In this document: positions 1 through 3,557 of the stretch, in pieces
How the letters are laid out: every line of letters begins with the position of its first letter
Position numbering within the stretch: position 1 is the first letter of the stretch
Origin: Verrucomicrobiaceae bacterium
Lineage (GTDB): Bacteria; Verrucomicrobiota; Verrucomicrobiia; Verrucomicrobiales; Verrucomicrobiaceae
Assembly: GCA_016795485.1 (NCBI GenBank)
Contig: JAEUHM010000007.1
Coordinates: forward strand, 1-64,000
Length of the DNA stretch: 64,000 nucleotides
Reading direction: 5' to 3'
The notes under the pieces: generated by a model
The model's database searches: none
What the model saw: the letters and a program-made list of their open reading frames with translations, nothing else
What the model was told of the DNA's origin: nothing
Position numbers and translations under genes: made by a program

Positions 1-30
1 TTTGCGGTGGTTTGCAGTAGTTTGCAGTGG
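1..30. repeat. 10-bp tandem repeat, three units
   Basis: Three back-to-back 10-mers, TTTGCGGTGG, TTTGCAGTAG and TTTGCAGTGG, differ from each other by one or two bases. A decayed fourth unit may follow. The window starts inside the array, so its full length is unknown. No function can be read from it. Confidence 0.6.
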
Positions 31-50
31 TTGAGCGATGAGTCTGAAGG

Positions 51-79
51 GTAGGGCGAGGTGTCCCCACCGAGCCGTC
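51..79. repeat. 29-bp dispersed repeat, copy 1
   Basis: This copy reads GTAGGGCGAGGTGTCC, then C, then CACCGAGCCGTC. A second copy at 172-200 differs at one base (T for the middle C). The 92 bases between the copies are not repeated. Such GC-rich non-coding repeats are typically spread through a genome, but that cannot be tested here. Confidence 0.75.
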
Positions 80-171
80 ACAGCAGGCCAAAGGACTCCC
101 TTCATCCCAATAACCAACAGCCCACCCCACGCCCCCAACAATCGCCAACCATCGCCAACGTCCCCTGGGAG

Positions 172-200
172 GTAGGGCGAGGTGTCCTCACCGAGCCGTC
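172..200. repeat. 29-bp dispersed repeat, copy 2
   Basis: Second copy of the repeat at 51-79, in the same orientation with one C-to-T difference. It is preceded by a short imperfect duplication of ATCGCCAAC around 141-159. No ORF with coding character spans the repeat. Confidence 0.75.
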
Positions 201-617
201 GTGGCAGTCCAATCAACATCATCTCCTGCCCAGTGCGAAGAAGACGGAAGACTGAAATCCAAACACAACACCGCTCTCTGTCTCAGACGTTGAATCACTC
301 CTTCATTCAGGTCTGGCGTCTGCTGTCTTCCCCTAACATTCTACTGCCACCATTCTTCTGCCATCCCGTCAAGAACCAAGCACCAGGAACAAAGAATAAA
401 CCTCCACCACCCCACCCCAAGGCAGTTAATCCGATCAAAATGTCAGCGCAATATCGATTGATCAAGATAGGCGTATGATCACAAAAGCCTCATGACTACC
501 GACATCCAAGCAAAAGGGCCCCAACCTTGACAGAACAAGCCCTCACCACCATGATTCGCCATGAAACAGTCCCAGAAATATCACTCGGTAGTGATATCGC
601 CTCACACTAATTAGACT
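201..617. other. gene-less stretch upstream of the cassette array
   Basis: No convincing gene is seen. The reading frames that cross this stretch are low-complexity Pro/His/Ser-rich shadows. A perfect 8-bp palindromic hairpin, ATATCACT-CGGT-AGTGATAT, lies near 577-596, shortly before the first core site at 618. It could be a promoter-proximal operator or part of a decayed recombination site. No integrase gene or attI-like site could be recognised. Confidence 0.5.
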
Positions 618-646
618 GTTAGCCCAACTTCAACCTCGCCCTCTAA

Positions 647-1471
647 ATGTCAGCTACGTTTACCAGTGGAGCCATCAAGCGCAGCATACGCAAGTTTACG
701 GACTATGCTGGCGATCTCTTGAAGTCAGACTACAATACCTTTGAGGATCGGCTGAACGTCTTCATACAGTTTTGTAGCTCAGACGAAGTGTTTTCCCGCA
801 TCCACGAGCAGCTCATTTCAGTTCCAAACGCTGACTTCGATTCGTGGTTTGCCGAGAGGCAGGCTACTGTTGGCAGCTTTGCTGGCAGCGGAAAGCTCAT
901 TTTCCCAGCTCAGCCTGAGGAGCGGCTGTCGATCATGTATCAGCTCCTTTACGGGGTATATGCCGGGAGCGTTCCTTTTCAGTCGTTCACGTTGCACTTT
1001 TTCGCCTTAGGGTCGAGCCGCTACGACGACTACATTTACGCTTTTAATGAGTCGGTGACTCAGCCGCTAGTTCGAGAGTTGGCTTATCGTCTTGACGAGT
1101 TAGACGAGCAACTCCCCGCCGAAAAGACGACAGAGGTATCACCTTCAGTGATACAGATCATTCATCACGCCACTAATGTTATTCAACAGCACGCCTCTGG
1201 AGAGAACATCCAACAGAGTGCCACTATTTCTTTGTCACCTGATCTTGCAGGTCTATTCGCACAGCTTCGATCTGCTGTGGCGTCCGCTGGATTGCCTCCT
1301 GCCGAGGCCAGAGAAGCCGAGGAGATTGTTGAGAGTGCTGCGTCTGAAGCTTCCCAACAGCGCCCTCGCTCATCTGTTCTACGAGCCCTTTTTCGCAGCC
1401 TTCCTGCATCGGATGCTATTCTCTCAATCACATCTTCAATCATCGAGATTATTTCCAACACAATGGGCTAA
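647..1471 (+). CDS. hypothetical cassette-borne protein, 274 aa, C-terminal hydrophobic helix
   Basis: I do not recognise the family. The N-terminal two thirds is a mixed, probably globular region. From about residue 165 it changes: a His/Gln segment (IIHHATNVIQQHASGENIQQ), then two predicted amphipathic helices rich in Ala/Glu, a short basic stretch (RPRSSVLRALFRSLP), and a hydrophobic helix at about residues 255-274 ending at the stop. A globular head, an N/Q-rich linker, paired helices and a C-terminal hydrophobic tail together resemble several small proteins of defence islands. That comparison is inference only. The ATG lies 23 bases after the core site GTTAGCC, and the stop TAA overlaps the inverse core GGCTAAC, so the gene fills its cassette. 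Confidence 0.75.
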   Translation: MSATFTSGAIKRSIRKFTDYAGDLLKSDYNTFEDRLNVFIQFCSSDEVFSRIHEQLISVPNADFDSWFAERQATVGSFAGSGKLIFPAQPEERLSIMYQLLYGVYAGSVPFQSFTLHFFALGSSRYDDYIYAFNESVTQPLVRELAYRLDELDEQLPAEKTTEVSPSVIQIIHHATNVIQQHASGENIQQSATISLSPDLAGLFAQLRSAVASAGLPPAEAREAEEIVESAASEASQQRPRSSVLRALFRSLPASDAILSITSSIIEIISNTMG

Positions 1472-1553
1472 CAATAAAGGCCGTATTGCTGCGAGGGGTT
1501 GAGTTTGTTGCTTTTGGGTTTCATCGAGCCAGCAACTACGGCCAGGGTTGAAC
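1466..1553 (+). repeat. attC-like recombination site A
   Basis: It starts with the inverse core GGCTAAC and ends at GTTGAAC (1547-1553), which fits the core consensus GTTRRRY. Inside, GGCCGTA+TTGCTG (1479-1491) pairs with CAGCAA+TACGGCC (1530-1543), leaving one unpaired C at 1536. This is the bulged-stem layout of attC sites. The 72 bases 1470-1541 are identical to 3101-3172. The outer heptamers are complementary only at AAC/GTT, as expected when the downstream core belongs to a different cassette. Confidence 0.6.
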
Positions 1554-1900
1554 ACTGCCATGCCGCGATAGCGGCTCCACTGCTGAGCTAGGCTTTAGAA
1601 TGGACATCGAGGCCCAAATACAATACTTCTTTGTTCATCTTTGTATGTGGTGTGTTGATTGCACTTTACTTCGCTCGCCGGATCAGGACTCCACGTCCTT
1701 CCCCGAACATGCGGATAGGCCTCGCCAGAAGCAGTCCGCGATTGATGAACGCTGCCGCGTTCACCCTAGCGGGAAAGCCGTTGGCTTTTCTGTCTCACTC
1801 CGTTCGGCTCATAAGCGGCCAGCACACCACGCCTTTTCAATCAGTCACGCTGCACCTCCGACTAGCTTGCGCTGGCTGGGCCGCAGCCATAAAGTCTCGG
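1470..1900. repeat. long imperfect repeat, copy A
   Basis: The first 72 bases (1470-1541) are identical to 3101-3172. After a divergent middle, similarity resumes: around 1679-1711 (GGATCAGGACTCCA against GGATCAAGACTCCA), at 1807-1837 (shared GGCCAGCACACCACGCC) and at about 1880-1900 (CCGCAGCCATA..GTCTCGG). Copy A carries about 77 extra bases (roughly 1729-1806) absent from copy B, including the putative core GTTCGGC. No convincing ORF lies within it, so it may be an ORF-less cassette copied behind two different genes. Confidence 0.6.
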
Positions 1901-1971
1901 CATCAAAAGAACGCGCAGGGTGGTCGAAGGCCCCCGAATACGGTACCACAGGCCACTGGTCATAACTATCC
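1554..1971. other. gene-less stretch between cassette ORFs
   Basis: Two overlapping frames are open here (1600-1965 and 1631-1975), but they overlap each other, have no protein-like composition and are not preserved in the paralogous copy B. I treat them as non-coding. The stretch holds the rest of long repeat A, a perfect small hairpin AAAGCC-GTT-GGCTTT near 1775-1790, and the putative core site GTTCGGC at 1802-1808 that would open the next cassette. Confidence 0.5.
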
Positions 1972-2442
1972 ATGAACGCGGAAGAAGCCGAAAAAATCGT
2001 CTGCCAGAAAAACAATGGCGAGCTTTTCGCGATGCTTGCACACCCTGAAGAATGGGTTCCAGAGGTGCTTGGAGCAGCTAAGGATCAGCTACGGACGAGA
2101 GGTATTGAGTTTACCCAAGCCATCCCGCAGAGCCAACCGCCACCACGCAGAGGCAACCCAGGCAACACCCATCGCGGTTTCATGCTTCTAGCAGTAATGG
2201 TTGCCATGGCAATCTTTGCCCAACCCAACATCGAAAATCCGCAAGAAAAGTTTCAGACGCTTCTGCGTTCGCAGAAGGCGAAAATCTACGAGGATGGCAA
2301 TCTGGTCACCACTGCCAAGCGATGTCTCTCTTGTGGTCGGGAGGTTCCTTTAGATTCTCAAGTTGGCCAGACCTGTCCACACTGCAGAGTTCGCTGGTCC
2401 AAAGAGGTCATTGGTCGAGCTGACCGTGGAGACGCTCAGTGA
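1972..2442 (+). CDS. membrane-anchored zinc-ribbon protein, hypothetical, 156 aa
   Basis: Three parts are visible. The N-terminal helical segment, residues 1-45, includes HPEEWVPEVLGAAKDQLRTR, a pattern seen at the start of assorted small bacterial membrane proteins. One transmembrane helix lies at about residues 64-78 (FMLLAVMVAMAIFA). The C-terminal zinc ribbon has two CxxC knuckles, CLSC and CPHC, about 17 residues apart. No catalytic motif is present. It may be a small adaptor or a redox- or nucleic-acid-contacting protein. It sits between a core-like GTTCGGC at 1802 and the attC at 2530-2655, so it is probably a cassette gene, although the 163-base leader is long for one. Confidence 0.7.
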   Translation: MNAEEAEKIVCQKNNGELFAMLAHPEEWVPEVLGAAKDQLRTRGIEFTQAIPQSQPPPRRGNPGNTHRGFMLLAVMVAMAIFAQPNIENPQEKFQTLLRSQKAKIYEDGNLVTTAKRCLSCGREVPLDSQVGQTCPHCRVRWSKEVIGRADRGDAQ

Positions 2443-2529
2443 GCAAACCATGTCGCCAAATAAAAATCCACAGATTAACATAAGTCCAGCATCCGTCTTA
2501 GACCTAGCCACTTCTGGGGTAACTCCAAG

Positions 2530-2655
2530 GCTGAACAAGGAGCGGCTGGACAACCGCTGGGGCTGCAGTGTCGGCCATGGTTTCCGTAACTTTAACCCGC
2601 CATCCCGTTTCGACGCTCATCCCGTCCCAGCGGCGCCAGCGCTTGAGCGTTCGGC
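2530..2655 (+). repeat. attC recombination site, classical architecture
   Basis: The outer boxes GCTGAAC (2530-2536) and GTTCGGC (2649-2655) pair over seven positions with one G-T wobble. Unpaired spacers of 4 and 5 bases follow. The inner box AGCGGCTGG (2541-2549) pairs with CCAGCGCT (2636-2643), leaving a single extrahelical G. A 4/2 internal loop follows, then CCGCTGGG (2554-2561) pairs with CCCAGCGG (2626-2633). This R-box, spacer, bulged L-box and terminal-stem layout is the known recognition structure of integron integrases. It is the strongest site in the window. Confidence 0.75.
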
Positions 2656-2677
2656 TTAAACTCGCAAGGTCACTCGA

Positions 2678-3133
2678 ATGACTTCTTCTGAGATCATCAC
2701 AGCAATCAGCATCCATTTGTTGGTTCCAGTCGCAGGTGTGGTGGCCTATCTCGCTCTTTGTCGGCGTCTATTCGTTGCTGGTGCCTCCCCCATGTTCTTG
2801 GCACAGCTTTTCCTGCTCTTTGTTTGCTACGGAGGCGTTCTTCTCGTCGTCCTGACCAGTTTGTTCTGGTATTGGTCTGGCATGGCGTCGTTGGGGGTAT
2901 TCTTCCTGATCCTGGCTGCACCGATTCTGCTTTTGCCTGTCTTGCTCAGTTTGTGGAAGCAGAAGAATCATTCATTAGCACACCGTATCGCGTTCCGAGC
3001 TTGCGGTGGGTATTACGTTCTAATTGCCGTGCTGCTGTGCTCGCTTCCATTGATGCGGAGCATGGTGAGCAGCCATACGCCCGAGTCCTCCAACAAGCCG
3101 AACAATAAAGGCCGTATTGCTGCGAGGGGTTGA
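2678..3133 (+). CDS. small integral membrane protein, hypothetical, 151 aa
   Basis: About four transmembrane helices are visible: roughly residues 9-27, 38-62, 67-90 and 104-125. Loops are short and no catalytic or metal-binding motif is seen. The ATG lies 23 bases after the core site GTTCGGC (2649-2655), the same spacing as the first cassette gene. The last ten codons (NNKGRIAARG) are encoded by the attC-like repeat at 3097-3172, so the reading frame runs into the recombination site, which is common in cassettes. The natural function is unknown. Confidence 0.7.
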   Translation: MTSSEIITAISIHLLVPVAGVVAYLALCRRLFVAGASPMFLAQLFLLFVCYGGVLLVVLTSLFWYWSGMASLGVFFLILAAPILLLPVLLSLWKQKNHSLAHRIAFRACGGYYVLIAVLLCSLPLMRSMVSSHTPESSNKPNNKGRIAARG

Positions 3134-3193
3134 GTTTGTTGCTTTTGGGTTTCATCGAGCCAGCAACTACGGTCCCGCAGAGCGGGATTGAAT
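3097..3193 (+). repeat. attC-like recombination site B
   Basis: The inverse core GCCGAAC (3097-3103) is perfectly complementary to the cassette's own 5' core GTTCGGC (2649-2655). Bases 3101-3172 are identical to site A. The bulged stem is CCGTA+TTGCTG (3112-3122) with CAGCAA+TACGG (3161-3172), again with one unpaired C. The 3' core aligned with site A's GTTGAAC is degenerate here (ATTGAAT, 3187-3193). An extra hairpin TCCCGC-AGA-GCGGGA (3173-3187) precedes it, so this end may be decayed. Confidence 0.55.
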
Positions 3194-3557
3194 GGGCTCG
3201 GTGTGATTCGTTCTGTTCGGTGAGTGAGCGATCCGCAGTGTCGTTGATGATGGTGATCTCCAGCAGATTGACTTCGTCTGTCTGGATGACTCGGCTCATG
3301 GAGGCCAGCAGATTCTTCTCTGATGGGTTGGAGTGTTGGTGGGCGTGAACGGGGGCGGTGGATGGCAATGACTGGTGTTTTGTGGCCGGTCCTTATTTGC
3401 GGGATCAAGACTCCATTTCCTTCGCTAACCATGAGCCCCAGCCTTTCCAGAAGGGGCCCGAGGCTCACAAGTGGCCAGCACACCACGCCTTTTTTAGTCA
3501 ACCGTGCCGCGCCCCAGATCAGCTCATGCTGATCAGTCCGCAGCCATAGGGTCTCGG
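3101..3557. repeat. long imperfect repeat, copy B
   Basis: Paralogue of 1470-1900: the first 72 bases are identical, then blocks of strong similarity are separated by divergent sequence. The best later block is 3463-3493 against 1807-1837. It follows an unrelated ORF, so the repeat moved or was copied independently of the gene in front of it. Confidence 0.6.

What the first reader, a model, noticed from the sequence alone, without database searches (positions are those of the whole stretch)
618..3193. Integron-like gene-cassette array in a verrucomicrobial chromosome
Seen directly: heptamer pairs GTTAGCC/GGCTAAC, GTTCGGC/GCCGAAC (both perfect) and GTTCGGC/GCTGAAC bracket ORFs; a 126-base site at 2530 folds as R-box, spacer, L-box with one bulged G, then a terminal stem; two other sites share 72 identical bases beginning exactly at the conserved AAC. 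Known: this is how attC sites of integron cassettes are built. No intI is in the window. Cassette arrays in this phylum are little described and may deliver unknown functions.
Basis: partly seen in the sequence, partly recalled or inferred. Interest (0 to 1): 0.75.

Follow-up and report, generated by a model that had tools for sequence, protein, structure and literature searches.

The report
Gene-cassette array at orphan integron docking site
The first 3.6 kb of the window is a real integron-type row of exchangeable genes in a Verrucomicrobiales bacterium, and it starts at one of about 13 scattered copies of an integron docking site with a built-in promoter, although the single integron enzyme gene found in the genome lies elsewhere and has a different docking site.

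Summary
The array is real. The genome has one integron integrase gene (contig C16, 382 bits against a cut-off of 265) followed by canonical attC sites. The window's site at 2530-2655 belongs to an attC family found in that array and beside intI in other genomes. The 72-base sites (1466, 3097) belong to a family with about 18-20 copies in this genome.

Two things change the reading. First, the sequence after both 72-base sites is an internally deleted IS110-family remnant inserted in the attC core. Second, the sequence before the first cassette (519-620) matches the attI site plus cassette promoter found divergently upstream of three integrases of another subclass in relatives. This genome has about 13 copies and no such integrase. 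Three loci share the chassis (92-94% identical) but carry unrelated cassettes.

I call this a new variant of a known kind: intI-less mini-arrays headed by dispersed attI/promoter sites. Whether the C16 integrase serves them in trans, or they are relics of lost integrons, is open. Cassette 1 resembles a candidate anti-phage family (PDC-M14B).

The parts
519..620 (+). attI/Pc-like site (beta): TTGACA, 17 bp, CATGAT, hairpin ATATCACT/AGTGATAT, CACACTAATTAGACT then the core GTT at 618
   Evidence: about 13 copies in own genome; same layout divergently upstream of three intI genes in relatives
618..1465 (+). cassette 1: core GTTAGCC, ORF 647-1471 (274 aa), PADLOC PDC-M14B-like (candidate anti-phage)
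   Evidence: core complementary to R'' at 1466
1466..1549 (+). attC of cassette 1 (alpha family); R'' GGCTAAC, stem with one bulged G; the following GTT core is interrupted by the IS remnant
   Evidence: fold of the circular form
1550..1897 (.). internally deleted IS110-family remnant A: reverse complement of transposase start plus 5' non-coding end, ending GTCT next to CGGC of the next cassette
1898..2529 (+). cassette 2: ORF 1972-2442 (156 aa), zinc-ribbon-like at low scores, function unknown
2530..2655 (+). attC of cassette 2 (gamma family), R'' GCTGAAC, R' GTTCGGC
   Evidence: 83% identical to an attC in the C16 intI array; same family beside intI in G034, G031 and G013
2649..3096 (+). cassette 3: core GTTCGGC, ORF from 2678 (151 aa to 3133, running into the attC), hydrophobic, probable membrane protein, no family match
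3097..3189 (+). attC of cassette 3 (alpha family), R'' GCCGAAC
3190..3554 (.). second, diverged IS110-family remnant C, ending GGTCT; array end before pyruvate kinase (3786)

Best explanation
The region is a small integron cassette array without its own integrase. It begins at an attI-like site that also carries a cassette promoter (519-620). An integron integrase inserted promoterless gene cassettes at the GTT core of this site and at attC cores behind it; the first cassette is then transcribed from the built-in promoter. Later, IS110-family elements that home on attC cores landed between GTT and the next cassette, and decayed. The genome repeats this layout at about 13 places with different cassettes. 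Shown by sequence: the attC families, the attI-like site and its match to intI-linked sites, the IS remnants, the shared chassis. Inferred: that an IntI did the insertions, and that TTGACA/CATGAT is an active promoter. Open: which IntI, and whether it still works.
For: intI on C16 above cut-off with delta and gamma attC sites next to it. Window gamma site matches C16 attC, 83% over 102 bases, E 3e-22, and intI-linked arrays of other genomes. Delta attC found in 34 of 57 genomes of the order. Alpha sites share arrays with delta and gamma sites on C13 and in the window. Cassette-start and cassette-end cores match in 14 mini-array units better than shuffled pairing (60 of 70 against 48.7, p 4e-5; several values were read by hand after a parsing error). 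Mostly a single ORF per unit starting shortly after the core. attI-like layout at intI genes G019:C70, G019:C24, G013:C7; pattern 13 hits in 289 genomes, reversed control 0. C18, C49 and C53 share upstream flank and alpha-IS block at 92-94% but carry unrelated ORFs.
Against: No movement was observed; all is sequence inference. The only intI in the assembly (C16) is about 43% identical to the integrases that own this attI type, and its own upstream region lacks the site. Nearly every alpha copy is followed by GTTGA/ATTGA-type repeat sequence, so alpha could be linked to the IS rather than be a plain attC. No reference attC covariance model (IntegronFinder) was available. The genome is a 61-contig draft with many of these loci at contig ends.
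Confidence: 0.72

Rival explanations
1. The beta sites are fossils: a second integron (subclass 2 IntI with this attI) once existed in several copies and its intI was lost, leaving attI/promoter and cassettes behind (CALINs by integrase loss).
For: The matching attI sits beside subclass-2 intI in G019 and G013; no such intI in this genome; intI loss is a proposed origin of CALINs (PMC8618304).
Against: No intI remnant was found beside any of the beta sites, several of which have 4-10 kb of flank fetched, and upstream flanks mostly differ from each other. Promoter and attI parts are retained in about 12 of 13 copies.
Confidence: 0.45
2. Dispersed docking sites: the C16 IntI acts in trans on all beta sites, so one integrase fills many promoter-bearing platforms.
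For: Shared chassis with different cassettes at C18, C49, C53; attC families gamma and delta occur both behind beta sites and in the C16 array; beta-like sites without intI in the fetched flank also in G003, G201, G015.
Against: IntI proteins usually prefer their own attI (established knowledge); C16 attI looks different; an unassembled subclass-2 intI or a plasmid cannot be excluded.
Confidence: 0.35
3. Off-target insertion: cassettes entered ordinary chromosomal attG-type sites by chance, with no docking site.
For: attG insertion is documented (Loot et al. 2024, cited in PMC12444791); arrays are scattered.
Against: attG sites share little sequence with classical att sites, whereas beta is a 105-bp conserved block ending exactly at the core in about 13 places and matches intI-linked attI.
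Confidence: 0.08
4. Alpha is not an attC but the end of an IS110-family element; the cassette-like edges come from IS insertion specificity.
For: Nearly all alpha copies are followed by repeat tails that look like IS ends.
Against: Full-length IS copies on C16 and C27 lack alpha and sit in delta cores; alpha ends a cassette after a delta attC on C13; alpha R'' is complementary to the cassette start and folds with R boxes paired in the circular form; the alpha model weakly hits sites in relatives, two of them on contigs with delta arrays.
Confidence: 0.12

Closest known systems
Sedentary chromosomal integron (intI, attI, Pc, attC cassette array)
   Same: C16 intI plus attC array; mostly single-ORF cassettes with complementary core sites
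   Different: the window array and about 12 others have an attI/Pc-like head but no intI beside them
CALIN (clusters of attC lacking integrase; IntegronFinder, PMC9024848)
   Same: cassettes and attC sites without nearby intI
   Different: these clusters start at a conserved attI/promoter-like site, present about 13 times
attG insertion sites (Loot et al. 2024, cited in PMC12444791)
   Same: cassettes scattered over the chromosome
   Different: attG sites diverge from classical att sites (PMC12901181); beta is conserved and related to an intI-linked attI
Delta-attI-type cassettes of class 1 and 2 integrons (PMC12901181)
   Same: attI pieces found away from intI, inside arrays
   Different: there attI pieces replace attC downstream of an ORF; here the promoter-attI unit is upstream and heads the array
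IS1111-attC group insertion sequences (Tetu and Holmes 2008; seekRNA paper PMC11187229)
   Same: DEDD transposase IS inserted at attC sites
   Different: here mostly internally deleted remnants repeated at several loci; IS110 versus IS1111 group not settled

Membership tests
Integron cassette array | attC sites of a family found next to an intI gene | tested here: met
   gamma site 2530-2655 matches C16 attC and intI-linked arrays in other genomes
Integron cassette array | cassette starts and ends with complementary core sites | tested here: met
   14 units, p 4e-5 against shuffled pairing; not significant from the window alone
Integron cassette array | attC folds as single strand with R boxes paired and extrahelical base | tested here: met
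   bulged-G stem in gamma; alpha of cassettes 1 and 3 folds with R boxes paired in the circular form; the fold energy of the gamma site itself is not better than shuffles (z 0.50)
Complete integron | intI adjacent to the array | tested here: not met
   no intI in the window; contig begins at window base 1; the only intI above cut-off is on C16
attI site with Pc promoter | divergent position upstream of intI, conserved sequence to the G^TT insertion point, promoter | tested here: inconclusive
   met at three intI genes in relatives and sequence-conserved here, but no cognate intI here and no activity test
Integron cassette array | hit by a reference attC covariance model (IntegronFinder, HattCI) | not testable with these tools
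   models not available; own models used instead
IS110/IS1111 insertion sequence | DEDD_Tnp_IS110 plus Transposase_20 domains in a full-length copy | tested here: met
   C16 copy, both above Pfam cut-off; window copies are deleted remnants
PDC-M14 candidate defence system | both genes A and B present | tested here: inconclusive
   only a B-like protein matched (E 1.4e-20); the neighbouring cassettes gave no defence match; that the system has two genes is inferred from its name
Mobile cassette | excision and integration by IntI | not testable with these tools
   needs a recombination assay

The most novel reading that the evidence does not exclude
A one-to-many integron: one integrase (C16) serves about a dozen dispersed docking sites, each with its own promoter, so many first-position cassettes are expressed at once instead of one.
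Probability: 0.3. Interest if true: 0.75.

Novelty: new variant of a known kind. Interest (0 to 1): 0.52.

Why it matters
In textbook integrons only the cassettes nearest the single attI are strongly expressed. A genome with about 13 promoter-attI heads would relax that limit, or would record repeated loss of integrases. It also bears on how integrase-less cassette clusters arise, for which several routes have been proposed, and shows a shared attC family in more than half of the Verrucomicrobiales genomes searched.

Tried and rejected
A rule-based attC finder found the C16 sites and window 2530 but also 21-24 hits per 60 kb of background per strand, so it was not used as proof. Rfam gave no match. 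AlphaFold of cassette 1 was poor (pLDDT 39.6) and not searched further. Cassette 1 has no relative in the other genomes of the order searched, at E 1e-5 (289 genomes, own included). Considered GTTCGGC at 1808 as a cassette start and rejected it: it lies inside the IS remnant conserved at other loci. The first core-pairing test misread several right ends; one search repeats it with corrected values.

Full report
What was checked. The window is contig C18 from its first base, in a 6.5 Mb, 61-contig genome (99.87% complete). The heptamers, the 126-base site and the 72-base identity are all present. By themselves the heptamer brackets are not significant: 5 ORFs observed, 4.2 expected from re-pairing, P 0.40.

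Is there an integron? Yes. One gene on contig C16 (64-1071, minus strand) scores 382 bits with the integron-integrase model TIGR02249, cut-off 265. Divergently beside it lie canonical attC sites of two families, here called delta and gamma. C27 carries a longer run of delta and gamma sites. Delta sites occur in 34 of 57 genomes, often 95% or more identical; 21 of 57 have an intI above cut-off. Both counts include the own genome.

How the window connects. The site at 2530-2655 is a gamma attC: 83% over 102 bases to the C16 site, E 3e-22, and the same family lies beside intI in G034, G031 and G013. The 72-base sites belong to a third family, alpha: 18 hits in this genome by covariance model and one good hit in another family of the order. 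Alpha and delta share an array on C13; alpha and gamma share the window array. Units mostly hold a single ORF, unrelated between loci: HNH nuclease, glyoxalase-like, BamE-like, ankyrin and many unknowns. Start and end cores match better within units than between units (60 of 70 against 48.7, p 4e-5).

What lies between. Window 1550-1897 is 92-94% identical at C49 and C53 and similar at C57, C45 and C44. Its middle is the reverse complement of the start of an IS110-family transposase; longer copies lie on C16 (cut by the contig end) and C27. On C27 the element splits an attC core as GTT, element, CGCC, and the next cassette ends in GGCGAAC, complement of GTTCGCC. The window copies are internally deleted forms in alpha cores. 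attC-targeting elements of the related IS1111 group are known (PMC11187229 and references there).

The head of the array. Window 519-620 recurs about 13 times: C18, C49, C53, C57, C54, two on C51 (one partial) and six on C36, with the complete copies ending at a cassette core. It has TTGACA, a 17-base gap, a CA-box, a short hairpin and ACACTAATTAGACT^GTT. The same order of features, with TTGACT-17-CATTCT, lies divergently upstream of three integrases of another subclass (G019:C70, G019:C24, G013:C7; motif about 520-620 bases from the matched start of the gene). A 17-base pattern of its end had 13 hits in 289 genomes of the order and none for the reversed control. Some relatives also have it without intI in the fetched flank. 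This genome has no integrase of that subclass and no remnant of one that a protein search could see.

Interpretation. The simplest reading is a promoter-bearing attI that heads a small cassette array. Loci C18, C49 and C53 share chassis but not cargo, which points to cassette exchange after duplication. Whether C16 IntI acts on these sites in trans or they are relics of lost integrons cannot be decided here; I lean slightly to relics (0.45) over trans use (0.35). These two are readings of how the array is kept, and both are compatible with the best explanation above.

Cassette 1 matches PADLOC candidate family PDC-M14B over nearly its full length, E 1.4e-20. That is a family label, not a tested function. 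Limits: draft assembly, no reference attC model, no experiment, and a literature library that lacks most subscription papers, so an earlier description of dispersed attI sites cannot be excluded.

Noticed in passing
window 1550-1897 and 3190-3554; C16:5421-6987; C27 about 63.9-65.9 kb: IS110-family element inserts between GTT and the rest of attC cores; internally deleted copies recur in alpha sites. Its non-coding end could hold a guide RNA matched to attC cores; not tested.
   Followed up: partly
34 of 57 genomes of the order; own C16, C27, C1, C60, C54, C13: A delta attC family is nearly identical across several families of the order, suggesting a shared cassette pool.
   Followed up: partly
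L150 (G054:C119) 2131-2222: A single alpha-type site with a similar following tail in a different family of the same order, without intI in the fetched flank.
   Followed up: partly
G279 C330:53, C333:1138, C341:13764 (L183, L184, L185): The attI end motif with a different, shared upstream sequence and no hairpin, three copies in one genome of another family.
   Followed up: no
window 1-518, also C49 and C53 upstream flanks: Repeat-rich flank shared at 92-94% by three cassette loci; contains short repeats such as gaggtgtccccaccgagccgtc.
   Followed up: partly
L190 (G000:C4:44.8-48.6 kb): Further degenerate alpha, delta and IS-end matches: another decayed array.
   Followed up: no
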